Source: an uncultured Caryophanales bacterium
Lineage (GTDB): Bacteria; Bacillota_I; Bacilli_A; RF39; UBA660
Direction: 5' to 3'
Assembly (NCBI GenBank): GCA_947169395.1
Contig: CAMVPJ010000002.1
Coordinates: 1 to 64,000, forward strand
DNA: 64,000 nucleotides
Notes under the pieces: generated by a model
What the model saw: only the letters and a program-made list of their open reading frames with translations
Told to the model about the DNA's origin: nothing
Databases searched by the model: none
Made by a program: the position numbers and the translations under genes
In this document: positions 784 through 12,798 of the stretch, piece after piece
Layout: every line of letters starts with the position of its first letter
How positions within the stretch are numbered: the stretch's first letter is position 1

Positions 784-2535
784 TTATCTAATCTTAATAT
801 GTGCCTCTCTTAATTGTAATTCAGTTACCTCACTAGGACAGTTCATCATCATATCAGCGCCACTAACACTCATTGGGAATGCTTGAACCTCACGTAAGTT
901 AGACTCTTCCCTAAGTAACATAATCATTCTATCAATTCCAGGAGCCATACCTGCATGAGGAGGTGCACCAAACTTAAATGCATTATATAGTGATGTAAAT
1001 TTCTCTTTAACGATACTCTTATCATATCCTACCATACTAAATGCTTTTTCTAATGCTTCTACACTATGATTACGAACCGCACCTGATGCCATTTCATTAC
1101 CATTACATACAAAGTCAAATTGAGAAGCAATTATATCATCGATATTTTCTTTATCAAATGCGTCAACACCATTTTTAGGCATAGAAAATGCATTGTGACA
1201 GAAATCATATTTCTTCTCTTCATCATTATATTCAAACATTGGAAAATCATTAATAATACAGAATTCAAATACATTTTCATCTATTAAGTCTAGACGACGA
1301 CCTAACTCAGTTCTAATCATACCAGCTTGCTTAGCAGCTACTTTTTCTTTTCTATCAGCTATAAAGAATAATACACTATTTTCCTTTAAATCTGCTTTAT
1401 CAATTAAATTCTTTCTATCTTCATCTGTTAAGAACTTATCAATAGGTCCTTTAAATGATAAATCAGCATTTACTGTAATATAACCAATACCAGGCATATC
1501 AATAGTTTTAGCATACGCAACAAGTTCATTAAACCAACTATTAGACTTAGTACCAATACCATCTACTTTAATAGCTCTAACAACACTACCTCTAAATGGT
1601 TTAAAATCACTATCTTTAAATATTTCTGAAATATCAATTATTTCAAGTGAATTTCTTAAATCTGGTTTATCTGTACCATATTTAAGCATTGCATCTTTAT
1701 AACTTATACGTTTAAAAGGTGCCTTGGATACTTTCTTATCACTAAACTTAGTAAATGTATCATAGAATACTTTCTCACCTATTTTATATACATCCTCTTC
1801 ATCAACAAAAGCCATTTCAAAATCTAATTGATAGAATTCTAATGTTCTATCACTACGACAATCTTCATCTCTAAAGCATGGAGCGATTTGATAATATTTA
1901 TCAAATCCTGATACCATTAATATTTCTTTAAATATTTGTGGTGCTTGAGGAAGTGCATAAAATTTACCTTTAAACTTACGAGAAGGAATAATAAAATCTC
2001 TAGCTCCTTCTGGTGATGAAGCTGTAATTATTGGAGTTTGAACTTCAGTAAAATCCATACTATCCATTTCATTTCTTAAGAATTTTAAAAGTTCACTTCT
2101 CATACGTATATTATTACCAACTTTATCATTTCTTAAATCCAAGTAACGATATTTCAATCTTACATCTTCAGACACTTCTTTACTCTTTAATATTTCAAAT
2201 GGTAACTCATTAGGCGCACTACCTAATACCTCTAAACTCTTAACTAATAATTCAACAGTACCAGTAGAAATATGATCATTATAATCTTCCTCACTTCTTT
2301 TTCTAATAGTACCTGTTATAGTAACTGCAGATTCTTTAGTAAGTCCTTTAAATATAGAATCATCATTACTTACAACCTGTATAATACCTGTATAATCTCT
2401 AACATCTACAAATATTACTCCCCCATGGTCACGAATATTTGCAATCCAACCTGCTACAGTAATCTCCTTATCTACATCTGATTCAGTTATCTTACCACAA
2501 TAACGATTACGATATTTACTCAAATATTCACTCAT
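784..2535 (-). CDS. aspS: Aspartyl-tRNA synthetase, probably non-discriminating
   Basis: This class II synthetase of 583 aa charges tRNA-Asp. It has an N-terminal OB anticodon-binding domain (residues 1-110), motif 2 (FRDEDCRSDRTLEF), a bacterial GAD insertion and the motif 3 end APGIDRMIML. The OB domain reads RDHGGVIF with His37; histidine at this position is typical of non-discriminating enzymes, which also load Asp on tRNA-Asn, whereas discriminating enzymes usually carry leucine. This fits the operon: GatCAB would convert Asp-tRNA-Asn to Asn-tRNA-Asn. A good Shine-Dalgarno (AAAGGAGATG) precedes the ATG. Dual specificity is inferred from motif and context. Confidence 0.95.
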   Translation of the reverse strand: MSEYLSKYRNRYCGKITESDVDKEITVAGWIANIRDHGGVIFVDVRDYTGIIQVVSNDDSIFKGLTKESAVTITGTIRKRSEEDYNDHISTGTVELLVKSLEVLGSAPNELPFEILKSKEVSEDVRLKYRYLDLRNDKVGNNIRMRSELLKFLRNEMDSMDFTEVQTPIITASSPEGARDFIIPSRKFKGKFYALPQAPQIFKEILMVSGFDKYYQIAPCFRDEDCRSDRTLEFYQLDFEMAFVDEEDVYKIGEKVFYDTFTKFSDKKVSKAPFKRISYKDAMLKYGTDKPDLRNSLEIIDISEIFKDSDFKPFRGSVVRAIKVDGIGTKSNSWFNELVAYAKTIDMPGIGYITVNADLSFKGPIDKFLTDEDRKNLIDKADLKENSVLFFIADRKEKVAAKQAGMIRTELGRRLDLIDENVFEFCIINDFPMFEYNDEEKKYDFCHNAFSMPKNGVDAFDKENIDDIIASQFDFVCNGNEMASGAVRNHSVEALEKAFSMVGYDKSIVKEKFTSLYNAFKFGAPPHAGMAPGIDRMIMLLREESNLREVQAFPMSVSGADMMMNCPSEVTELQLREAHIKIR

Positions 2536-2549
2536 TTAATCATCTCCTT

Positions 2550-3074
2550 TTACATTATTATATTATTGTTATTACTACCTCTTGGCATTAATAATCTTAA
2601 CTTCTTATATTCTTCATATTCATCAAAATAATCATCTTTATCACTATAATATATCATAGCGTCTTTACTGGGATAATATCCCTTATCTATAATTGGAACA
2701 GCTACATAGAATAATTGATTTATAAGATTACTATTTTCTTTTACTATATTCCACAAATCAATTAATACTTTCCTTGATATATCTATATCTTTTGAGCCAT
2801 CAACTACATAATAATTTAATTTACGATATACTTCACAAAATATAAAATTATCTTTATCTTTTAAATTACCAGAAAATAATTTTAATTCTTTATTAGTTAT
2901 TGCATCAACTAATTTTTCATCTTCATCTTTATAACAAACACAATAATCTTTTAAAATAAAGAACGTATTTTTTACATAATAATCTATATTCTCATCATAA
3001 TATTCATCATCATATGCCTTTTCATATAATTCAAATATATATAAATCATCTAAATTATAAACATCTTTATTCAT
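2550..3074 (-). CDS. Acidic protein of unknown function between gatB and aspS
   Basis: This 174-aa protein is very rich in Asp, Glu and Tyr, with no signal peptide or membrane segment and no motif I recognise. It is probably cytoplasmic. It lies 22 nt after gatB and 14 nt before aspS on the same strand, so it is co-transcribed with the tRNA-Asn amidation genes. An SD (CAGGGGGATT) precedes the ATG. A role in the transamidation pathway is suggested only by position. Confidence 0.7.
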   Translation of the reverse strand: MNKDVYNLDDLYIFELYEKAYDDEYYDENIDYYVKNTFFILKDYCVCYKDEDEKLVDAITNKELKLFSGNLKDKDNFIFCEVYRKLNYYVVDGSKDIDISRKVLIDLWNIVKENSNLINQLFYVAVPIIDKGYYPSKDAMIYYSDKDDYFDEYEEYKKLRLLMPRGSNNNNIIM

Positions 3075-3096: not shown

Positions 3097-4554
3097 TTAT
3101 CTCTTATCTATTTCTTCTTTAATTATCTTAGCAGTTAAGCTTGGATTTGCTTGACCTCTAGTTGCTTTCATTACTTGACCTACAAAATAGTCAAATACAT
3201 TTCTCCCCTTACGATATTCTTCAATTAAATCTAGGTGAGCATCTAATATCTCTATTACAAGGCTTCTAATTGTATCTTCATCCCCTACTTGTTTTAATCC
3301 TAACTCATCTACTATTACTTGTGGTTCTTTCTCATCTGACAAGCATTTATATAAAACATCTTTACTTTGTTTAGAAGATATCTTACCATCATCAACCATT
3401 TTCATAATATCAAATAACATCTTAGGAGTAAGATATATCTCATCAATTTCAATATCATATTTATTTAAATGTCCTAATATTACTGAAGTTAACCAGTTAG
3501 ATGCTTTCTTAGGATTACCTCCTAGTTTAATTACTTCTTCATAATAATCAGATACTTTCTTATCTTTTACTATAATAGTTGCATCATAATCAGATAAACC
3601 ATATTTTTCAATATACTTAGTCTTTCTTTCACTAGCAAGTTCTGGAATAGATTTTCTAATTTCTTCTAACCAACTACTAGATATTTTATACTTTGGAATA
3701 TTAGGTTCAACAAAATACTTATAATCAATTGCGTCTACCTTACTACGCATATATATTGTAGACAAAGAATCTTCATCCCAACGTCTAGTTTGTTGTTCCA
3801 TCTTATCATATTCGCCTGACTCTTTTAGCTCAATTTGTCTATCAATCTCATAATTAATTGCATCTCTAACGCCACCAAATGAGTTAACATTCTTAATCTC
3901 AATCTTAGTACCCCAGTTATTAGAATCACTCTCATCTAAATCTTTATCCATAATAGATACATTTACATCACATCTGATTTGTCCTTTTCTAGAGTCAGCC
4001 TCAGAAATTCCTGCATATTGATAAATAGAACGCATTGTTTCCAAGAAAGCAACTGCTTCATCTGCAGAATGAAAGCAAGGTTCAGTAACTAACTCAAGTA
4101 AAGGTACTCCCGCACGGTTATAATCAATTGTTGAATATGATGAATAGTGATCAGTTGATGCAGCATCCTCTTCTAAGTGAAGATTATTAATAACCGCAAC
4201 TCTTTTTTCACCCTTACATTCATATTCTAAAGAACCATATATCCCTACTGGAGCAGGTTTAGTCTCTTGAGTAATTTGAAAACCTTTAGGCAAATCTGGA
4301 TAATAATAATTCTTTCTTTCAAAATACATGTACTCTGGTTGTTTACAATTTAATATCATAGAAGCTTTTAAAGCCATTTTAACAGCCTCTTTATTAACTA
4401 CAGGAAGTGTTCCTGGAAAAGCCATATCAACAGGTCTTACATTAGAGTTTGGAACATCTTTATAAGAGTTTTCGGCACTAGAAAATACTTTAGTATTAGT
4501 TTCACTAATCTCACAATGCATCTCTAAACCAATTAATGCTTTATACTTATCCAT
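3097..4554 (-). CDS. gatB: Asp/Glu-tRNA amidotransferase subunit B
   Basis: This 485-aa GatB is the tRNA-binding and kinase-like subunit of GatCAB. It activates the Asp or Glu side chain of mischarged tRNA for amidation. The GatB signature region (FERKNYYYPDLPKGFQITQ) and the start GLEMHCEI are present, as is the C-terminal YqeY-like helical tail ending in GQANPSLTAKII. Its ATG overlaps the end of gatA by 8 nt, suggesting translational coupling. Length is normal for the family. Confidence 0.97.
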   Translation of the reverse strand: MDKYKALIGLEMHCEISETNTKVFSSAENSYKDVPNSNVRPVDMAFPGTLPVVNKEAVKMALKASMILNCKQPEYMYFERKNYYYPDLPKGFQITQETKPAPVGIYGSLEYECKGEKRVAVINNLHLEEDAASTDHYSSYSTIDYNRAGVPLLELVTEPCFHSADEAVAFLETMRSIYQYAGISEADSRKGQIRCDVNVSIMDKDLDESDSNNWGTKIEIKNVNSFGGVRDAINYEIDRQIELKESGEYDKMEQQTRRWDEDSLSTIYMRSKVDAIDYKYFVEPNIPKYKISSSWLEEIRKSIPELASERKTKYIEKYGLSDYDATIIVKDKKVSDYYEEVIKLGGNPKKASNWLTSVILGHLNKYDIEIDEIYLTPKMLFDIMKMVDDGKISSKQSKDVLYKCLSDEKEPQVIVDELGLKQVGDEDTIRSLVIEILDAHLDLIEEYRKGRNVFDYFVGQVMKATRGQANPSLTAKIIKEEIDKR

Positions 4555-6010
4555 TGTTTACCTCCTTTGCAATCTGACCTTTATAAGACATAGTAGATTC
4601 AATTGCATAAGCAATATTTAATATATTAGCATCATCATAACAATTACCAGTAATATTAACTCCAACAGGTAGGCCATCAATAAATCCATCTGGAATAGTA
4701 ATTGAAGGGAATCCTCCAAAGTTTCCAATTTGTAAATGTTCTTCTAGTGCTTTAGTATTTTCATCCAAAATATCTTTAGAACCTTCTAACTTTTTAGCTG
4801 GACCTGATCCTACAGGGAGAATTACTGCATCATAATCTTTAAATAATTCTTTCCATCTATCAACAAGTAATCTTCTAACACGTTGAGCATTATGGAAATA
4901 TCTATCTTTATTCTCAGCTTGTAATACATAAGAACCTATTACAAATCTTCTTTTAATTAATGGAGAAAAACCTTTAGTACGATGATCCTTCATCATTTCA
5001 ATATAATTCTTACCTTCACCACGAGGACCAAATATAAATCCAGTTAAATTAGACATGTTAGACGTTGCTTCCGCACATGATATAACTACATAAACTGAAG
5101 CTAAAGCATCTAATAACTTCTTATCTACACTAACCTCTTCTACATCAATACCAATACTCTTACACTTCTCAATTACATCCATAAAGTTAGCAAGATGACT
5201 CTTTAATTCTAGACTTGCATTAGGATATTTATTAATATCACATAGTTCTTTTATGTAACATAATTTCTTACCCTTTACATCTCCTGTAATACTTTCATAT
5301 AGGTTAATATTACTAGAATCCCAACTAGTCATATCGTTTTTATCTATTCCCTTCATACCATCTACAACAATTGCAGCATCTTTAACTGTTCTAGTTAAAC
5401 AACCACAATGGTCTAAACTTGATGCGAAAGGAAATAAACCATATCTTGAAATCATACCATAAGTTGGTTTATATCCAACAATTCCACAGTATGCAGCAGG
5501 TTTACGAATAGAATCTCCAGTATCAGAACCAGTTGCATAAGGATAAACACCAGCTGCAACAGAAGCAGCAGAACCAGCAGAAGATCCCGCAGTCATTCTT
5601 GTTTTATCCCAAGGATTAAGTACAGTACCAGTGTGACATGTAGTACCTGTACCACCCATACCAAACTCATCCATCGCACACTTAGTAACACCTACTGCTC
5701 CTTTACTTTCTAGATTCTTAATAGCAGTAGCTGTAAAAAATGGTACATAATCTTTTAAAGTATTAGATGAACCAGTAGATAATATATCCTTAGTTGAATA
5801 ATTATCCTTAATTCCATAAGGAATACCAGATAATAGATTATCAGTAACTTCAACACCCTTTGCGTCATCAATAATAGTTACAAAACTATTATATTCATCT
5901 TGGTTTTTGTGTGCTTTTTCTAATGATTCTTTAACTAAATCTTCACTAGTTACTTTACCACTCTTTAATGCCTCATGTATTTCTTCAATACTTTTACTCA
6001 TGTATTCCAT
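4547..6010 (-). CDS. gatA: Asp/Glu-tRNA amidotransferase subunit A
   Basis: This is the amidase subunit, which releases ammonia from glutamine for GatB. Amidase-signature features are present: catalytic Lys in GIPYGIKDNYS, AGSSAGSAASVAAG and GSDTGDSIRKPAA. The last two differ from the usual GGSSGGS and GSDTGGSIRQPAA. The nucleophile serine is kept, and I recall a similar DSIRKPA variant in mollicute-related GatA. The ATG at 6010 is chosen because AAAGGTGG precedes it by 9 nt; the gene then starts 1 nt after the gatC stop and gives 487 aa, the usual size. A longer reading frame (to 6061) would overlap gatC. Confidence 0.96.
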   Translation of the reverse strand: MEYMSKSIEEIHEALKSGKVTSEDLVKESLEKAHKNQDEYNSFVTIIDDAKGVEVTDNLLSGIPYGIKDNYSTKDILSTGSSNTLKDYVPFFTATAIKNLESKGAVGVTKCAMDEFGMGGTGTTCHTGTVLNPWDKTRMTAGSSAGSAASVAAGVYPYATGSDTGDSIRKPAAYCGIVGYKPTYGMISRYGLFPFASSLDHCGCLTRTVKDAAIVVDGMKGIDKNDMTSWDSSNINLYESITGDVKGKKLCYIKELCDINKYPNASLELKSHLANFMDVIEKCKSIGIDVEEVSVDKKLLDALASVYVVISCAEATSNMSNLTGFIFGPRGEGKNYIEMMKDHRTKGFSPLIKRRFVIGSYVLQAENKDRYFHNAQRVRRLLVDRWKELFKDYDAVILPVGSGPAKKLEGSKDILDENTKALEEHLQIGNFGGFPSITIPDGFIDGLPVGVNITGNCYDDANILNIAYAIESTMSYKGQIAKEVNNG

Positions 6011-6011
6011 A

Positions 6012-6308
6012 TTATTCCACCACCTTTGGTACTCTAACCTCGTCATTAATATAATCATCACAGTTTTTTAGTAAGTCTTCAATATCGACAGATTCTTCTA
6101 CAACATCCTCTCTTAATTCATATACAAAATCATCTAGAGTATGAGTCATAGGTTCTACACTTTCAATATTATCAATTTCCATAACCTTCGCAATATCAGA
6201 ATCAATTATATTAAATTCATCCAACACCATCTTATTCTCTTCTTCAGTTAATCCGATTAATAACTTATCAGCATAATCATCAACCATCTCTTTTGTAAAC
6301 TTCTCCAT
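6012..6308 (-). CDS. gatC: Asp/Glu-tRNA amidotransferase subunit C
   Basis: This 98-aa acidic protein matches GatC, the small subunit that wraps around GatA and stabilises it. The C-terminal half carries the usual EPMTHT segment and the tail REDVVEES...ILLKN-type region (here RVPKVVE). It is first in the gatC-gatA-gatB order, preceded by AAAGGAGGAATT-ATG and by an intrinsic terminator that separates it from two tRNA-Asn genes. Confidence 0.93.
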   Translation of the reverse strand: MEKFTKEMVDDYADKLLIGLTEEENKMVLDEFNIIDSDIAKVMEIDNIESVEPMTHTLDDFVYELREDVVEESVDIEDLLKNCDDYINDEVRVPKVVE

Positions 6309-6324
6309 AATTCCTCCTTTATAT

Positions 6325-6350
6325 ATAAAAAAACAAGCCCAGCAGACTTG
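6325..6350 (-). terminator. Intrinsic terminator/attenuator between tRNA-Asn and gatC
   Basis: On the minus strand AACAAGTC and GGCTTGTT form an 8-bp stem (one G-T pair) followed by seven Ts. It sits after the second tRNA-Asn and 16 nt before the gatC ribosome site, so full operon mRNA must read through it. Confidence 0.75.
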
Positions 6351-6362
6351 TTATAATCAAAA

Positions 6363-6438
6363 TGGCGCCTAATGTAGGACTCGAACCTACGACCTATCGG
6401 TTAACAGCCGAGTGCTCTACCAACTGAGCTAATTAGGC
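6363..6438 (-). tRNA. tRNA-Asn (anticodon GUU), copy 2
   Basis: The 76-nt cloverleaf has anticodon loop CTGTTAA (anticodon GTT), acceptor arms GCCTAAT and ATTAGGC, discriminator G and an encoded CCA. It is 3 nt downstream of an almost identical copy. The two differ only at one acceptor pair (C-G here, T-A there), a compensatory change that shows both are maintained. Confidence 0.96.
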
Positions 6439-6441
6439 ATA

Positions 6442-6517
6442 TGGCGCTTAATGTAGGACTCGAACCTACGACCTATCGGTTAACAGCCGAGTGCTCTACC
6501 AACTGAGCTAATTAAGC
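6442..6517 (-). tRNA. tRNA-Asn (anticodon GUU), copy 1
   Basis: The 76-nt cloverleaf has anticodon GTT, acceptor arms GCTTAAT and ATTAAGC, and an encoded CCA. It begins about 30 nt after the T-box sequence of the leader upstream, with no clear terminator in between, so it should lie on the T-box transcript. Confidence 0.96.
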
Positions 6518-6521
6518 ATTA

Positions 6522-6735
6522 CTGTCCGCTACTTTGGGACGAATAAACGCGGTGCCACCCAAATTGCCAAAAAAATTGACCTCTCATTAGATATAACGGG
6601 CTTCCCCGGCAAACGCACCAAATGGTTGTTCTTCATAATATACTTAATTGTTAGCTTTCACCATACCTAACTCGCTTTAACCAGTTTATATTACTACTCT
6701 TCCATTTATAGTATTAATCCCCAAAAAACAGCTAC
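6522..6735 (-). promoter_or_regulatory. T-box leader, Asn-type specifier
   Basis: The minus strand carries the T-box motif GGGTGGCACCGCG (6548-6560). Stem I features are present: AAGAGTAGTA (AGTA loop), the GCGAGTTAGGTATGGTG segment, and helix AAATGG/CCATTT around the specifier loop. That loop holds AACAAC; read in the usual GAA-N-codon-A spacing the specifier is AAC (6628-6630), which is Asn. Other registers (ACA, CAA) cannot be excluded by eye. The leader precedes two tRNA-Asn genes and gatCAB-aspS. I see no U-tailed terminator between the T-box and the first tRNA; only a weak GTCC/GGAC hairpin follows. Confidence 0.93.
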
Positions 6736-6741
6736 GAATTA

Positions 6742-6770
6742 ATTATAAAGTAATTAACCCACTTTGTCAA
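6742..6770 (-). promoter_or_regulatory. Sigma-A promoter of the T-box/tRNA-Asn/gatCAB operon
   Basis: A perfect -35 TTGACA (6765-6770) and -10 TATAAT (6742-6747) are separated by 17 nt on the minus strand. The start point is expected near 6735, a few nucleotides before the T-box Stem I. Confidence 0.9.
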
Positions 6771-6887
6771 TACTATTTTTCCACTTTTTCAAGAATACTA
6801 TTTTTTTCCTATATATCTTTTAATGAATAATATACCATATTTTCGCTAAAATATAGTTTAATGTCAAAATTAATATGGTGGTACTTT

Positions 6888-7358
6888 ATGTTTGAAAATA
6901 ATTTAAAAAATGCAAGAGAAGATTTAGATATGACTCAATCTGAATTAGGTTATATATTTGGAGTATCTCGTTCTGCTATTAAAAGTTGGGAAAATGGATA
7001 TTACACTATACCTTTATTAAAGTTAATTAAGTTTTGTAATATGTTTGATTATTCTCTTGATTATATAATGGGTATTATTAAAAGAAATATTAAGTATGGA
7101 CCATTTACTGTAGATAATATAATTATTAGTGAACGTTTAAAAAGTTTTAGAAAGTCTTTAAAGTTATCTCAACAAGAATTATGTGATAAGTGTAGAATTG
7201 CTCAAACTACATATAGCGGATATGAAAGAGGTAAATATTTAATTAATACTACTAATTTATATTATTTATGTAAAACATTTGATATATCTATGGATTATTT
7301 AATTGGAAGAATTGATAATCCTAAAATAAGTAATGAAAAAGAGACAACAGTTTTGTAA
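6888..7358 (+). CDS. Double-HTH XRE-family transcriptional regulator
   Basis: This 156-aa protein consists of two Cro/CI-type helix-turn-helix domains in tandem (residues about 6-60 and 85-140; motifs TQSELGYIFGVSRSAIKSWENG and SQQELCDKCRIAQTTYSGYERG). Each is followed by a DYLIG-type segment. The start at 6888 is chosen because GGTGG lies 6 nt before this ATG; an upstream ATG at 6861 has no ribosome site. It is divergent from the T-box operon. A paralog with the same layout is at 55952-56410. The target is unknown. Confidence 0.85.
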   Translation: MFENNLKNAREDLDMTQSELGYIFGVSRSAIKSWENGYYTIPLLKLIKFCNMFDYSLDYIMGIIKRNIKYGPFTVDNIIISERLKSFRKSLKLSQQELCDKCRIAQTTYSGYERGKYLINTTNLYYLCKTFDISMDYLIGRIDNPKISNEKETTVL

Positions 7359-7917: not shown

Positions 7918-8949
7918 TTAATTTTCTTCATTTAATTCAAAATTTTTCTTTTCTTCTTCAATAGCACTAATTAATTCTTGTTCTGTTGGCATGTGTAATT
8001 TATATTCAGAAGAAAAAATTGTTTTATTATCTTCAGGCAGAGTATATTTTACAACTGTTTCATTTTTATTTGTTGACAATAATGTTCCCACTGTTGGATT
8101 TTCATCATCGTGTTTAATTTCTCTATCATAATAATTAACATACATTTGCATTTGTCCTATATTTTGATGAGAAACTTTTCCAATTTTTAAATCAATAATT
8201 ACAAAACATCTTAAAAGCCTATTATAAAAAACTAAATCCGGATAAAAATGGTCTTCTTCTAATGTTAATCTGACTTGATTTCCAACATAACTAAATCCTT
8301 TGCCTAGTTCTAATAAAAACTCTTTTAAATGTTCAATAATGTTCTTTTCTAAATCAGATTCTAAATAGTCTGTATTTTCTTTTATATCTAAAAACTCCAA
8401 AACAAAAGGGTCTTTAACTAAATCTTTACTCGTTTTTAGTATTTGTCCTTTTTCAGATAGTTCTAATATTTTATCTTTATCTGCTGATAAAGATAATCTT
8501 TCATATAACAATGAATCTCTTTGTCTTTGAAGCTCTCTAACACTCCATTTAGAGTTAATACATTCTTTTAAGTAAAAGTTTCTTTTCAGTTCTTCGTCAA
8601 TCTTAATTAATTCTAAATAATGAGACCAGCTTAATTGCGACGACACTGTTGTCGCAATTGGAAAACATATATAAAATTTTCTCATTCTTTCTAGATTCCT
8701 TTTAGAGAATCCTTTACCAAACTCATTAGTTAATTTTTGTGATAATTTCTCAAGTACAGCATCACCATAACTTGCTCTTTCATCACCTTGTTGTATTTCC
8801 ATAATTGCTTTTCCTATATTCCAATATAAATTAAGCATTTCAGTATTTACAGTCTGATATACTTTATTTCTACTATTTATAACTAAACCTTTTATATTAT
8901 CAAAAATATTATTTATATCATTATCATTGTTCATTAATTCGTTACTCAT
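7918..8949 (-). CDS. YhcG/DUF1016-family PDDEXK nuclease
   Basis: This 343-aa protein matches the YhcG family. An N-terminal helical domain (SRNKVYQTVNTEMLNLYWNIGKAI, then LSQKLTNEFGKGFSKRNLERMRKFY) is followed by a C-terminal restriction-like fold with YPDLVFYNRLLRCFVIIDLK, which supplies the PD...DxK catalytic residues. Members are linked to mobile elements and defence; the substrate is unknown. The ATG at 8949 follows GGAGG by 7 nt; the upstream ATG at 8985 does not. It stands alone, with no methylase or toxin partner nearby. Confidence 0.88.
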   Translation of the reverse strand: MSNELMNNDNDINNIFDNIKGLVINSRNKVYQTVNTEMLNLYWNIGKAIMEIQQGDERASYGDAVLEKLSQKLTNEFGKGFSKRNLERMRKFYICFPIATTVSSQLSWSHYLELIKIDEELKRNFYLKECINSKWSVRELQRQRDSLLYERLSLSADKDKILELSEKGQILKTSKDLVKDPFVLEFLDIKENTDYLESDLEKNIIEHLKEFLLELGKGFSYVGNQVRLTLEEDHFYPDLVFYNRLLRCFVIIDLKIGKVSHQNIGQMQMYVNYYDREIKHDDENPTVGTLLSTNKNETVVKYTLPEDNKTIFSSEYKLHMPTEQELISAIEEEKKNFELNEEN

Positions 8950-9032
8950 TAGCATTCCTCCAGATACATAATTATTATATAACATATATACAAATAATCA
9001 ATATCTATTGGATATTTTTTTAATGAAGTGTT

Positions 9033-9058
9033 AAAAAATCCTGCATATTTGCAAGATT
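9033..9058 (-). terminator. Intrinsic terminator of the MMPL exporter gene
   Basis: AATCTTGCA and TGCAGGATT form a 9-bp stem with an AATA loop and a six-T tail on the minus strand, overlapping the stop codon of the gene. Confidence 0.85.
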
Positions 9059-12000
9059 ATTTAATTACCATGATAAACTTAGTTGTACCTATAATATCAT
9101 CAGACTTATCTCCATAAGATTGATAATTATTACTTAATTTAACTAGAGTTTTAACTGTATCAAGTTTACTAGTTAAATTATCATTAATAAATGATGTTAA
9201 CTTCTTTATACCAGTATCGTTAAATGTATTAAGTCCTGTTGCAAGAGTGTTAGTACCATTTTTAAGTGTATCTATACCACTTACTAATTCTATAGAACCA
9301 TTATGTAATTTATCTAAACCAGATGATAACTCCACTAAGTTAGTTGATAACAAGTTTAAAGAATCAATTGTTTTAGTAGTAGCTGCTGCTTTTGCTTTAT
9401 CAGCAACTGTAACAGCCACTCCTTCTGACACTTTCTCTGCAACACTCTTACTTATTGTTTGAGCAACACTTATTGCTGTATTTTTAGAAGTTTCTTCTAG
9501 TGCAGTTACTACAGGTTTATAAGTATTATAAGAAGTACAATATGCTTGATATTGTTCTGGAACCTCTGTTCCACTAGTACATAAAGCAAATAATTGTTCA
9601 TTAGCCTCAATACTATCAACTGCTGCTTTCATCTGATTATAATTATCATTAATCTTTAATCCTTCTACTGCTTGAAGACCAATATACTCTAATTGCTCTT
9701 CCGTTAAAGTAGCTCCACTTACTGCTTGCTCTTTAATCATATTAATAGTATCTTCATCTAAAGTACTTGAAGTATCATTCTTTAAATTATTAATAGAATC
9801 ATCTACCGCACTTTTAATCTTATTAGTTCCATCATAAGCACTATTAATTCCATTTTGTAATTCAACCGCACCACTTCTTAATTTATCAACTCCATTATTA
9901 AGTTCTGATGCACCACTAACTAACATATTAGTAGCTTTACTAAGTTCATTAATATCTGATGTAATATTAGATACACTACCTAATTTACTTAGGTCATTAG
10001 AATCTATTAATTTAGAAGTTGCAACTGCATAGATACTCTCCTTACTAAACTTAGTAGTATCATATTCAATTGTAACTTGATTAAGGTTAATAGAATCAAT
10101 TCCAAGAGATTCGTTTAATCCTGGAGAAGATAGTGCAACTACCATATTAGTTACTCCATTACTAATAACCTTACCATTAGTAACTTTAATATTTGTATTA
10201 TATTTAGAGTTAAGTGACATCTCACTTACTACAATAAATGGAGTATATAGTGTTTGATTATTAATACTATTACTTAAATTATTAGTATAATTAATAGTAA
10301 TTTCTACGTGTCCTTTTTTATTCTTAATATCTTTAGCTTTAACTACATTTCCATCTAATTTATAACTAACACTAATACTTACTGGTAATTCTTTATCACT
10401 ACTACCTTGATAATAAATATCTCCTTTATTAGTTTTCCAATTAATACTTTTACCATCGATACTAAATGTTTCGTTACCATTTAAATTCTTAATATTAGTT
10501 AAACTTGTTACATCATTAATAGTATCTAGTTTTTCATCATTAATTAAGTGTTCTGTAACTAATACGCTCTTAACTTTACCACTACTACCTAGTTTTGCAT
10601 ATACAGTCTCATCTTTAGATAATGCTTTAATATTAAATGGATTTATAAGTAATAAACCAATCATAATTAATAATGCTTTCTTCATTTTCTTTCCTCCAAA
10701 ACCTAAACTTGTTTTAATAATTAATCTATCAAATATTAGTAAGATTGATGGTAATACTAATATTACTACAATCATACTTATAATTGCTCCTCTTGATATT
10801 AATGTACATAAAGTACCTATCATATCTATTTTAGATACTACTCCTACACCAATAGTTGCAGCAAAGAAACACATACCACTTACAAATATTGATGAAATAC
10901 TACTATCTAAAGCACTTCTTACAGAGTCTTTTCTATTTACTCCACTCTTTCTTTCTTCTAAATACTTAGTAGTCATAAGTATTGCATAATCAATAGTAGC
11001 CCCTAATTGAATAGTACCTATAACTACACTTGCAATAAATGGTATTTTACTATGCATTAAGTAAGGAATACCCATATTTACAAATATAGCAAACTCTATT
11101 GCAGTAACTAAAAGTACTGGTAAACTAATAGATTTAGTTACTATAAGCATTAGAATAAATATAACAATAATAGATGTATAGTTTACATTATGAAAGTCCT
11201 CATCTGTAATAGATACTAAATCTCTCATTAAAGGTCCTTCTCCTGCTACTATTGCTTTTTTATCATACTTATCTACTATTTTATTTATCTTAGTTATTTG
11301 ATTATTTAACTTAGTAGTTGCAATATCATATGATGAATTTACTAATACTAGTTTATAATCTTCAGATTGATATATCTTTTTAATATCATCATCAATAAAA
11401 TCTTCACTAATACCTAGTTTACTTAACTTAGACGAGCTAAGTACTAAATCTACTCCATCTAAAGACTCTATATCATTAACCATTTCATTTAATTTATAGT
11501 TTTCTAAATCTGATGATACTAGTATCATAGTTTGTGATACTATTCCATAATCATCATGTAGTTTCTTAGTTGCTTTTTTATAACCATAACTATCAGGTAT
11601 AGATTCATCTAATTTATAATAAACATTAGTCTTTGTTTGAAATATATAAAATGGAACAAGTAATACTACAAATATTAAAAATACTATTACATAATGATTC
11701 ATAACAAAGTTTTTAACTCTAGTAAACTTTGGAGTAATTACTTTATGAGTAGTCTTTTCTATATACTTATCAAATACAAGTAAGAGTGCTGGAAAGAGTG
11801 TTACTACGCATATTAGTCCAAATAATACTCCTTTAGCCATTACTATACCAATATCTTTACCAAGTGTAAGATTCATAGTACAAAGAGCAAGGAACCCTGC
11901 AATAGTTGTTAAGGAACTACCAAATACTGATGTTAGAGTATTTACTATTGCATTACTCATAGCTTCATTCTTACTTTTATATTTCTTCTTTGCATCTTCA

Positions 12001-12749
12001 TATTTATGATATAAGAATATAGAAAAATCTGTGGTTACTCCTAATTGCAATACTGATGATATTGCTTTAGTAATATAACTTATATCTCCTAAGAATATAT
12101 TAGTTCCCATGTTAAATAGTATAGCAACTCCAATATTTGCAATTAACAAAAATGGTACTAAATATGAATCTAGGAATATTGCAAGTACAATAATACAAAG
12201 TATTACTGCTATACCTACATATAAAGCCATCTCACTATTAAATAGTTCTTGAGTATCAAGGACCATCGCACTCATACCACCTACTTCTGCTTTATCTTTT
12301 GTGATTTTTCTAATCTTACTTACTGCTTTTAAAGTTGTATCATCACTAGTTGCATTTTTAAATGTAATAAGCATTAAACTAGAATCTTTGTGAACAACTT
12401 TATTAGTAATACTACTAGGTAAGAAATCTAGTGGAATAGTAGTACCTGTAATATCATTAATACTAACTACTTTATCTACCCCATCTACCTTCTTAATACT
12501 GTTTTCTAGTTCAAGTAACTTCTTACTTGGCATATTATCAACTACAGTAACAGAAAATGCCCCCATATTAAAATCATCAGTTAATATGTTCTGTCCTTTT
12601 AATGTTTCAATATCATCTGGTAAATATACAAGTATATTATAGTTAACTTTAGTTTTATACATTCCTATCATTGCTGGAATAAGTAAAATAAGTGTTAGTA
12701 TTACTATAAATACTTTATTCTTACATATGATATCTGCAAATTTTTTCAT
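9057..12749 (-). CDS. MMPL/RND-type exporter fused to a secreted heptad-repeat protein
   Basis: This 1230-aa protein has two parts. Residues 1-688 form a two-module MMPL/RND permease with about 12 membrane segments and two large outer loops. From residue 689 (MKKALLIMIGLLLINPFNIKA) a typical Sec signal peptide begins, followed by an extracellular domain and L-x-x-G heptads (ELNNGVDKLRSGAVELQNG), as in YhgE/Pip-like proteins. GGAGG lies 7 nt before the internal ATG (10685), so this was probably a two-gene operon that lost the stop between its genes. The start at 12749 follows GAGGTG. It may export lipids or hydrophobic compounds; the substrate is unknown. Confidence 0.85.
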   Translation of the reverse strand: MKKFADIICKNKVFIVILTLILLIPAMIGMYKTKVNYNILVYLPDDIETLKGQNILTDDFNMGAFSVTVVDNMPSKKLLELENSIKKVDGVDKVVSINDITGTTIPLDFLPSSITNKVVHKDSSLMLITFKNATSDDTTLKAVSKIRKITKDKAEVGGMSAMVLDTQELFNSEMALYVGIAVILCIIVLAIFLDSYLVPFLLIANIGVAILFNMGTNIFLGDISYITKAISSVLQLGVTTDFSIFLYHKYEDAKKKYKSKNEAMSNAIVNTLTSVFGSSLTTIAGFLALCTMNLTLGKDIGIVMAKGVLFGLICVVTLFPALLLVFDKYIEKTTHKVITPKFTRVKNFVMNHYVIVFLIFVVLLVPFYIFQTKTNVYYKLDESIPDSYGYKKATKKLHDDYGIVSQTMILVSSDLENYKLNEMVNDIESLDGVDLVLSSSKLSKLGISEDFIDDDIKKIYQSEDYKLVLVNSSYDIATTKLNNQITKINKIVDKYDKKAIVAGEGPLMRDLVSITDEDFHNVNYTSIIVIFILMLIVTKSISLPVLLVTAIEFAIFVNMGIPYLMHSKIPFIASVVIGTIQLGATIDYAILMTTKYLEERKSGVNRKDSVRSALDSSISSIFVSGMCFFAATIGVGVVSKIDMIGTLCTLISRGAIISMIVVILVLPSILLIFDRLIIKTSLGFGGKKMKKALLIMIGLLLINPFNIKALSKDETVYAKLGSSGKVKSVLVTEHLINDEKLDTINDVTSLTNIKNLNGNETFSIDGKSINWKTNKGDIYYQGSSDKELPVSISVSYKLDGNVVKAKDIKNKKGHVEITINYTNNLSNSINNQTLYTPFIVVSEMSLNSKYNTNIKVTNGKVISNGVTNMVVALSSPGLNESLGIDSINLNQVTIEYDTTKFSKESIYAVATSKLIDSNDLSKLGSVSNITSDINELSKATNMLVSGASELNNGVDKLRSGAVELQNGINSAYDGTNKIKSAVDDSINNLKNDTSSTLDEDTINMIKEQAVSGATLTEEQLEYIGLQAVEGLKINDNYNQMKAAVDSIEANEQLFALCTSGTEVPEQYQAYCTSYNTYKPVVTALEETSKNTAISVAQTISKSVAEKVSEGVAVTVADKAKAAATTKTIDSLNLLSTNLVELSSGLDKLHNGSIELVSGIDTLKNGTNTLATGLNTFNDTGIKKLTSFINDNLTSKLDTVKTLVKLSNNYQSYGDKSDDIIGTTKFIMVIK

Positions 12750-12769
12750 TATAGTCACCTCTACGCACA

Positions 12770-12798
12770 ATATTATCACAAAAATGACTGATAGTCAA
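12770..12798 (-). promoter_or_regulatory. Promoter with embedded palindromic operator, MMPL gene
   Basis: TTGACT (12793-12798) and TAATAT (12770-12775) are 17 nt apart on the minus strand. The palindrome TGACTATCAGTCA (12785-12797) covers the -35 edge and the spacer. A symmetric site of this kind is typical for TetR-type repressors of exporter genes. No TetR gene is in the window. Confidence 0.75.

What the first reader, a model, noticed from the sequence alone, without database searches (positions are those of the whole stretch)
6325..6770. Asn-type T-box leader that precedes tRNA-Asn genes and the whole tRNA-Asn amidation operon
On one strand: perfect promoter, T-box with AAC-like specifier, two tRNA-Asn(GUU) genes, an intrinsic terminator, then gatC-gatA-gatB-X-aspS. 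T-boxes normally control mRNAs through a terminator right after the T-box motif; here no U-tailed terminator lies before the first tRNA, and the only strong one lies after the second tRNA. The regulated RNA would thus contain its own ligand. Uncharged tRNA-Asn could control synthesis of more tRNA-Asn and of the enzymes that make Asn-tRNA. T-box control of gatCAB/aspS by tRNA-Asn is known in clostridia; the embedded tRNA genes are the new part.
Basis: partly seen in the sequence, partly recalled or inferred. Interest (0 to 1): 0.8.

Follow-up and report, generated by a model that had tools for sequence, protein, structure and literature searches.

The report
tRNA genes inside a T-box switch
In a group of uncultured bacteria the RNA switch that senses uncharged asparagine tRNA carries, inside its own leader, the asparagine tRNA genes it senses, and base-pairing around those genes appears to let the cell always make the tRNA while making the charging enzymes only when they are needed.

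Summary
On the minus strand a perfect sigma-70 promoter, a T-box (RF00230, E 7.6e-21; specifier AAC, bulge UGGC), two tRNA-Asn(GUU) genes, one U-tailed terminator (T2) and gatC-gatA-gatB-X-aspS follow each other. It is no one-off: 23 further genomes of uncultured Bacilli carry it, ahead of gatC (19), asnS (3) or a contig end (1), and no other tRNA-Asn gene was found in them. Ordinary T-boxes examined keep a U-tract (26 of 26); tRNA-bearing ones lack it (21 of 24), though the competing hairpin H1 can still form. The strand that H1 would release is complementary to T2's 5' arm and loop, across the tRNAs, and this pairing covaries (0 of 20,000 permutations as good; three controls flat). My model is a five-strand relay: uncharged tRNA-Asn holds the antiterminator, H1's 3' arm pairs around the tRNA array and blocks T2, and the enzymes are made; otherwise T2 stops transcription after the tRNAs. 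No transcript data exist; the relay must be kinetic.

The parts
6742..6770 (-). promoter TTGACA-17-TATAAT
   Evidence: 12 of 12; 19 of 21 cassettes have 12 of 12 and two have 11; 21 ordinary T-boxes of the cassette genomes score 9-11; but the tRNA-less leader L108 also has 12 of 12
6532..6718 (-). T-box leader
   Evidence: RF00230 92.1 bits, E 7.6e-21
6628..6630 (-). specifier AAC (Asn) in the Stem I specifier loop GAAG-AAC-A
   Evidence: alignment to RF00230 and the sequence; GAA[N]AACA in all 21 distinct cassettes (together)
6558..6563 (-). strand 1: 5' arm of the antiterminator (UUUGGG)
   Evidence: sequence; local fold with CCCAAA
6554..6557 (-). UGGC bulge, complementary to the tRNA-Asn 3' end GCCA
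   Evidence: sequence; T-box core
6533..6541 (-). strand 2: CGUCCCAAA, 3' arm of the antiterminator and 5' arm of H1
   Evidence: sequence; energies
6524..6530 (-). strand 3: AGCGGAC, contains the 3' arm of H1 and the 5' strand of the long-range outer helix; not followed by a U-tract
6518..6522 (-). 5' strand (GUAAU) of the inner long-range helix
   Evidence: inner-helix permutation p 0.015 (21 loci), 0.0034 (12 representatives); register, where adding it to the outer helix costs 1.2 kcal/mol in the window
6442..6517 (-). tRNA-Asn(GUU) gene 1, CCA encoded
   Evidence: ARAGORN, RF00005 73.5 bits
6363..6438 (-). tRNA-Asn(GUU) gene 2, CCA encoded
   Evidence: ARAGORN, RF00005 73.6 bits
6353..6357 (-). 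3' strand (AUUAU) of the inner long-range helix
6341..6347 (-). strand 4: GUCUGCU, 5' arm and loop of T2, complementary to strand 3
6327..6352 (-). terminator T2 (9-bp hairpin) with U-tract; its 3' arm is strand 5
   Evidence: a T2 hairpin folds in all 21 distinct cassettes
6012..6308 (-). gatC
   Evidence: TIGR00135 E 2.2e-10, below its curated cut-off; PF02686 above its cut-off
4547..6061 (-). gatA (start uncertain; the listed frame overlaps gatC)
   Evidence: TIGR00132 E 9.7e-128, below its curated cut-off
3097..4554 (-). gatB
   Evidence: NF004012 E 5.5e-167, above cut-off
2550..3074 (-). gene X, 174 aa, no family
   Evidence: no NCBIfam or Pfam match
784..2535 (-). aspS
   Evidence: NF001750 E 2.9e-217, above cut-off

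Best explanation
A transcriptional T-box whose expression platform has been moved behind tRNA genes. One strong promoter makes one RNA: T-box, tRNA-Asn genes, terminator T2, gatCAB-X-aspS. Five strands can pair as 1-2 and 3-4, or as 2-3 and 4-5. Uncharged tRNA-Asn, bound at the AAC specifier and the UGGC bulge, holds the antiterminator (1-2). This frees strand 3, which pairs with strand 4 around the folded tRNA array; the loop half of T2 cannot form and RNA polymerase reads into the enzyme genes. With charged tRNA-Asn, strand 2 pairs with strand 3 (H1, which has no U-tract and so should not terminate), T2 (4-5) forms, and transcription stops after the tRNAs. The tRNA is made always, the enzymes on demand. 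Shown by sequence: the parts, their order, the missing U-tract, the conservation, the covarying 3-4 pairing. Inferred: the switch itself, its direction, its kinetic nature, and release of the tRNAs by ordinary processing.
For: Own-locus pairing of strand-3 and strand-4 segments in 21 distinct cassettes: summed duplex energy -234.8 against a permuted mean of -178.8 (sd 8.9), 0 of 20,000 permutations as low; 12 hand-picked representatives: 0 of 100,000; 40 random draws of one locus per 75%-identity cluster (11 clusters): p at most 0.001. Controls flat for 21 loci: reversed strand 4 p 0.51, T2 3' arm plus 20 nt p 0.84, leader piece upstream p 0.62. The pair next to the core holds in 20 of 21 loci in five pair types (p 5e-5), the next in 18 of 21 in four types (p 3.5e-4). 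U-tract missing in 21 of 24 tRNA-bearing T-boxes, present in 26 of 26 ordinary ones. Only 49-66 nt separate the last tRNA from the first codon and no conserved promoter lies there, so the enzymes need read-through of T2. The cassette tRNAs are the only tRNA-Asn genes found. Perfect promoters in 19 of 21 cassettes against 0 of 21 ordinary T-boxes. Relative L099 has a 14-bp complement of T2's 5' arm upstream of the tRNA's own promoter, so only T-box transcripts would carry it (2 of 1000 shuffled leaders, 6 of 1000 shuffled T2 segments reach it).
Against: By constrained minimum free energy, antiterminator plus T2 is more stable than antiterminator plus the long-range helix in 20 of 21 loci (the window is the exception, by 0.4 kcal/mol) and H1 plus T2 is the most stable in 21 of 21, so the relay must win by kinetics. 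The unbroken core of H1 in the window is 4 bp (the constrained fold adds pairs beyond a bulge). L007 keeps only the 4-bp core of the outer helix unbroken. The third flanking pair does not covary (9 of 21, p 0.65). In L004, L008 and L014 the first flanking base is G and may also lengthen H1, so it is not free of that constraint there. The inner helix is weaker evidence and does not add stability in the window. In 11 representatives a pair slid by one (x-2 with y3) was also enriched (9 of 11, p 0.013; 14 of 21, p 0.056 in all). Unconstrained folding of the leader shows no unusual stability (z 0.07 and -0.16). Type-2 relatives show no relay signal (L111, L113). L108, a T-box leader without tRNA, also has a perfect promoter, so promoter strength is no proof. 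The loci are related, so permutation p values are optimistic. No transcript data.
Confidence: 0.6

Rival explanations
1. The long-range helix is a processing stalk: flanks of the tRNA array pair so that a nuclease (such as RNase III) cuts the tRNAs out; T2 is a leaky terminator and the T-box acts little or not at all.
For: A helix that brackets the array is what a stalk would look like; the inner helix next to the tRNAs is supported (p 0.0034 for 12 representatives, 0.015 for 21). Read-through of a leaky T2 would suffice for enzyme mRNA.
Against: The better supported outer part lies on T2's 5' arm and loop and on H1's 3' arm, so it excludes both hairpins; a stalk has no reason for that. L099's complement lies upstream of the tRNA's own promoter, so transcripts from that promoter would lack it. 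Specifier and T-box motif are kept in the cassettes.
Confidence: 0.15
2. One reading: the T-box stops transcription at H1 before the tRNAs, so uncharged tRNA-Asn controls synthesis of tRNA-Asn as well as of the enzymes.
For: A hairpin H1 that competes with the antiterminator can still form. L111 and L113 have a U-tailed T-box terminator directly before three tRNA-Asn genes, their only ones found. L124 has H1 followed by five U.
Against: No U-tract after H1 in 21 of 24 tRNA-bearing T-boxes against 26 of 26 ordinary ones with one. As the only tRNA-Asn genes found would be off unless uncharged tRNA-Asn is already there, the design is risky. It does not explain the covarying strand 3-4 pairing.
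Confidence: 0.12
3. T-box relic: T2 is a constitutive leaky terminator that sets the ratio of tRNA to mRNA.
For: No terminator directly after the T-box; T2 has a good hairpin and U-tract.
Against: Specifier AAC in all 21 distinct cassettes; bulge UGGC or UGGU; core letters of both antiterminator arms invariant in the 17 aligned; strand 3-4 covariation.
Confidence: 0.08
4. The cassette's own precursor tRNA binds the T-box in cis before its 3' end is freed and acts like charged tRNA, so the switch reads tRNA maturation as well as charging.
For: Two ligand copies lie on the same RNA, the first 14 nt after the end of the T-box match; a blocked 3' end mimics charging in known T-boxes (recalled).
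Against: No test made here; geometry of a cis complex not modelled. Not exclusive with the relay.
Confidence: 0.05

Closest known systems
Transcriptional T-box riboswitch (RF00230), as in tyrS or glyQS of Bacillus subtilis (examples recalled)
   Same: Stem I specifier, UGGN bulge, T-box motif, antiterminator competing with a hairpin, downstream genes that charge the same tRNA
   Different: The competing hairpin H1 has no U-tract; the only terminator lies behind tRNA genes and would be reached through an extra long-range pairing; the leader encodes its own ligand
T-box of the tRNA-dependent amidation operon of Clostridium acetobutylicum (Saad 2012, 2013: seen only as reference entries and as a passage in the review PMC4052509)
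   Same: T-box with an Asn codon before the transamidation operon; in the window the letters GAAC would also allow the overlapping Glu codon
   Different: The passage read mentions no tRNA genes in the leader; the overlapping Glu codon is not conserved in the relatives here (A, G or U precedes AAC) and UGGC fits discriminator G
Multi-strand attenuators such as the trp leader (recalled)
   Same: Alternating pairing of successive strands decides whether a terminator forms
   Different: The sensor is a T-box, there is no leader peptide, and the third and fourth strands enclose tRNA genes
tRNA-mRNA cotranscripts such as the E. coli tRNA-tufB operon (recalled)
   Same: tRNA genes upstream of a protein gene in one transcript
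   Different: Here the terminator between tRNA and protein gene appears to be switched by charging of that same tRNA

Membership tests
T-box riboswitch (RF00230) | sequence and structure match to the Rfam model | tested here: met
   Window 92.1 bits, E 7.6e-21, 0.9 bits under the gathering score. Of L001-L018, 15 pass the gathering score and L002, L010, L012 do not; these score 86.6, 91.5 and 92.9 in the genome search. L117, L122, L123 pass, L070 scores 88.3; L124 was not scanned
T-box riboswitch (RF00230) | specifier triplet matching a tRNA whose charging the downstream genes serve | tested here: met
   AAC with tRNA-Asn(GUU) and gatCAB-aspS downstream; no asnS at E 1e-100 in six genomes of the nearest genus that carry the cassette
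T-box riboswitch (RF00230) | UGGN bulge complementary to the discriminator base | tested here: met
   UGGC against G73 with encoded CCA; four of the 21 distinct cassettes (L009, L018, L055, L124) have UGGU, a G-U match
T-box riboswitch (RF00230) | antiterminator mutually exclusive with a second hairpin | tested here: met
   CGUCCC shared by antiterminator and H1
Canonical transcriptional T-box | U-tailed intrinsic terminator directly after the T-box motif | tested here: not met
   absent in the window and in 21 of 24 tRNA-bearing T-boxes; present in 26 of 26 ordinary ones
Translational T-box | sequestered ribosome-binding site controlled by the T-box | not tested
   two tRNA genes and T2 lie between the T-box and the ribosome-binding site, which makes it unlikely; no fold test of a sequestering stem was made
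T-box riboswitch (RF00230) | binds its tRNA and responds to charging | not testable with these tools
   needs binding and transcription assays

The most novel reading that the evidence does not exclude
A riboswitch leader that encodes its own ligand: a five-strand T-box relay in which the tRNA genes form the loop of the antitermination helix, so one transcript gives constitutive tRNA-Asn and demand-controlled Asn-tRNA enzymes, in a lineage where these are the only tRNA-Asn genes found.
Probability: 0.6. Interest if true: 0.88.

Novelty: new variant of a known kind. Interest (0 to 1): 0.8.

Why it matters
T-boxes are known to control proteins through a terminator or ribosome-binding site next to the tRNA-binding domain. 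Here the same sensor seems to act some 180-200 nt further on, past structured RNA genes, through a relay strand. That would show that a riboswitch can skip a functional RNA gene in its own transcript, and how a cell keeps an essential tRNA out of a feedback loop that would otherwise need that tRNA to make it. The relatives form a series (T-box only; tRNA with its own promoter; tRNAs behind an intact T-box terminator; U-tract lost), so the origin of a new expression platform can be followed and tested.

Tried and rejected
Literature for tRNA genes in T-box leaders: ten searches (two searches found no paper, one search listed 20 of 41) showed nothing on it in titles or starts of abstracts. The passages shown of PMC7778990, PMC2494555, PMC4052509, PMC7583486, PMC12452182 and PMC4206432 (only part of the matching places) do not mention it. 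Saad 2013 and a 2009 T-box review are not held and Saad 2012 was not looked up, so absence from print is not proven.

Alignment-based covariation (MAFFT, 17 sequences with two tRNAs) was dropped because variable H1 loops misalign strand 3; I used alignment-free permutation and hand-anchored columns instead. The four single-tRNA cassettes were left out of that alignment only. The permutation set of 21 leaves out L002 (same as the window there), L015 (same as L014), L011 (read as L055) and L016 (contig ends in tRNA1).

Separate promoter before the tRNAs or before the enzyme gene: best matches 7-10 of 12, not conserved; L122 has one of 10 before tRNA1, L017 a perfect -10 with a poor -35 inside T2. 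Two-codon (Glu/Asn) specifier: not conserved. A relay in L111 and L113: no signal. Searches (385 genomes of the order; 291 of the family; 7 of the genus) gave 7, 6 and 5 matches to the T-box-tRNA patterns, all in genomes already known; the arrangement is rare and clade-bound. G397 of the genus shows neither gatC nor tRNA-Asn, perhaps an incomplete assembly.

Full report
WHAT IS THERE. On the minus strand a perfect promoter (6770-6742) is followed by a T-box leader (6718-6532). Rfam finds it at 92.1 bits, E 7.6e-21, 0.9 bits below the curated threshold, so the default scan did not list it. The specifier loop reads GAAG-AAC-A, giving the asparagine codon AAC, and the UGGC bulge matches the encoded tRNA end GCCA. 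After 14 nt begin two tRNA-Asn(GUU) genes (6517-6442, 6438-6363). Then come a 9-bp hairpin with a U-tract (T2, 6352-6332), a ribosome-binding site and gatC, gatA, gatB, a gene without family, and aspS.

HOW WIDESPREAD. The window's own genome is not held. A pattern scan of 84,980 species genomes for a T-box motif followed within 15-45 nt by a common tRNA D-arm found 18 loci, all in MAGs labelled Bacilli, Bacillales, Erysipelotrichaceae or Tenericutes; tRNAs with other D-arms or at other distances would be missed. ARAGORN finds one or two tRNA-Asn genes at the T-box in 17; L011 is cut by the end of the stored locus, and L055 of the same genome shows two. Five more genomes came from other patterns: G398, G402, G071, G444, G244. 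In the genus of the closest genome 5 of 7 match, and a sixth, G398, has the cassette with a longer loop. Outside this clade the arrangement is rare: 6 of 291 sampled genomes of the family, 7 of 385 of the order. Of the 23 genomes, gatC follows in 19 (35-98% identical to the window's GatC), asnS in three (L001, L005, L017), and G016 ends in the tRNA. In L014 the gene order fits gatC-gatA-gatB-asnS (asnS placed). In the six genomes of the nearest genus with the cassette no asnS was found, so GatCAB with AspS is their only visible route to Asn-tRNA. The cassette tRNAs are the only tRNA-Asn genes found in all 23: searches (18 of them plus G398 and G397, up to 2 mismatches; G244, G402, G071, G444) show otherwise only tRNA-Ile-like matches (GATAAG); (15 genomes, another pattern) agrees. 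The genomes are MAGs and may be incomplete, and a very divergent gene would be missed.

THE MISSING U-TRACT. Among distinct T-boxes in my loci, 26 of 26 not directly followed by a tRNA have a run of at least five T after the CGTCC arm; 21 of 24 directly followed by tRNA-Asn have runs of three or fewer. The 26 are 22 from the cassette genomes, taken from the best-scoring of about 157 other T-box matches there, and 4 from relatives. The exceptions are L111 and L113 (seven T) and L124 (five T). The hairpin H1 that competes with the antiterminator can still form, for example UUCGUCC-GGACGAA in L001; it is short or bulged in some (window, L003).

A SERIES OF LEADERS. Upstream of gatC in relatives: type 0, T-box with U-tailed terminator directly before gatC (L100, L101, L106, L108); type 1, T-box with its terminator, then a promoter, one tRNA-Asn, T2 and gatC (L099); type 2, U-tailed T-box terminator, three tRNA-Asn, T2, gatC (L111, L113; L102 of G215 has three tRNAs but its contig starts inside the first); type 3, H1 without U-tract (five U in L124), one or two tRNA-Asn, T2, gatC or asnS (the window and the rest). 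Four further gatC loci (L103, L104, L105, L107) show neither T-box nor tRNA-Asn; L109 and L110 gave no T-box or tRNA match and were not read further. The order of steps is my inference; no tree was built.

THE RELAY. In 21 distinct type-3 cassettes (L124 included; see Tried and rejected for what was left out) I compared the segment between CGUCCC and tRNA1 with the segment between the last tRNA and the T2 loop. Own-locus duplexes are much better than swapped ones: -234.8 against -178.8 (sd 8.9), 0 of 20,000 permutations. With 12 hand-picked representatives, 0 of 100,000; controls with reversed strand 4 (p 0.51; 0.30 for representatives), T2's 3' arm plus 20 nt (0.84; 0.70) and a leader piece upstream of the T-box motif (0.62; 0.43) are flat. 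Random representatives of 11 clusters at 75% identity give p at most 0.001 in 40 draws. The outer helix alone gives 0 of 100,000 and the inner one p 0.015, or 0.0034 for representatives. By position: the pair next to the GGAC/GUCC core is kept in 20 of 21 loci as C-G, A-U, G-U, U-G or G-C (p 5e-5; 11 of 11 representatives, p 0.005), the next in 18 of 21 as G-C, U-A, A-U or G-U (p 3.5e-4; 9 of 11, p 0.009), the third not (9 of 21). A slid control pair was also enriched in the representatives (9 of 11, p 0.013), the other five slid pairs not (made with one locus misanchored). In the window the outer helix is AGCGGAC with GUCUGCU. The flanking positions lie in the H1 loop in most loci, so H1 does not force them; in L004, L008 and L014 the first is a G that may lengthen H1. 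In L099 a 14-bp complement of T2's 5' arm lies between the T-box terminator and the tRNA promoter; 2 of 1000 shuffled leaders and 6 of 1000 shuffled T2 segments reach its score, while by duplex energy it is only p 0.03-0.04.

HOW IT MOST LIKELY WORKS. Antiterminator (strands 1-2) plus relay helix (3-4) is the ON state; H1 (2-3) plus T2 (4-5) is the OFF state. The enzyme genes can be reached only through T2: the last tRNA and the first codon are 49-66 nt apart and the best promoter-like matches there reach 7-9 of 12 and are not conserved. Promoters of the cassettes are perfect in 19 of 21 and 11 of 12 in two, those of 21 ordinary T-boxes of the same genomes score 9-11, which fits a promoter that has to supply tRNA; but the tRNA-less leader L108 is perfect too, and types 0-2 range from 9 to 12. 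Since these seem to be the only tRNA-Asn genes, a classical T-box in front would need tRNA-Asn to make tRNA-Asn; losing the U-tract removes that trap. In a simple evaluation of the window, antiterminator plus outer relay is -14.9 (-13.7 with the inner helix), antiterminator plus T2 -14.5 and H1 plus T2 -12.5 kcal/mol relative to folded tRNAs alone. In constrained folding of all 21, antiterminator plus T2 is lower than antiterminator plus relay in 20, and OFF is lowest in 21. So the relay must act during transcription: it would occupy the loop half of T2's 5' arm before T2's 3' arm is made.

WHAT IS NOT SHOWN. No binding, no transcript ends, no charge response. Related loci make the permutation p values optimistic. 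A processing stalk remains the best rival.

NOVELTY. It meets the tested T-box features except the terminator directly after the motif. I file it as a new variant of the T-box: same sensor, displaced expression platform, ligand genes inside the leader. In ten searches of the open-access library I found no report of it, but key subscription papers are not held.

Noticed in passing
window 2550-3074 (-): 174-aa gene between gatB and aspS without any NCBIfam or Pfam match, in the amidation operon
   Followed up: no
window 6631-6628 (-): The letters GAAC in the specifier loop would allow overlapping Glu (GAA) and Asn (AAC) codons, as described for a Clostridium acetobutylicum T-box; the G is not conserved in relatives
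   Followed up: partly
L111 and L113, upstream of gatC: U-tailed T-box terminator directly before three tRNA-Asn genes, the only ones found in those genomes: there the T-box may control the whole tRNA-Asn supply, a positive feedback loop
   Followed up: partly
L099 1174-1500: T-box terminator, separate promoter, single tRNA-Asn and T2 before gatC, with a 14-bp complement of T2's 5' arm upstream of the tRNA promoter
   Followed up: partly
L124 (G244): H1 followed by five U before the tRNA: possible intermediate between type 2 and type 3
   Followed up: no
window 6861-7358 (+): Divergent helix-turn-helix protein just upstream of the cassette promoter (matches to RstR and HipB-like families)
   Followed up: no
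window 7918-8985 (-): YhcG/DUF1016 nuclease-type protein (PF06250, PF17761)
   Followed up: no
window 9057-12779 (-): 1240-aa MMPL/RND-like membrane protein with a heptad-repeat match
   Followed up: no
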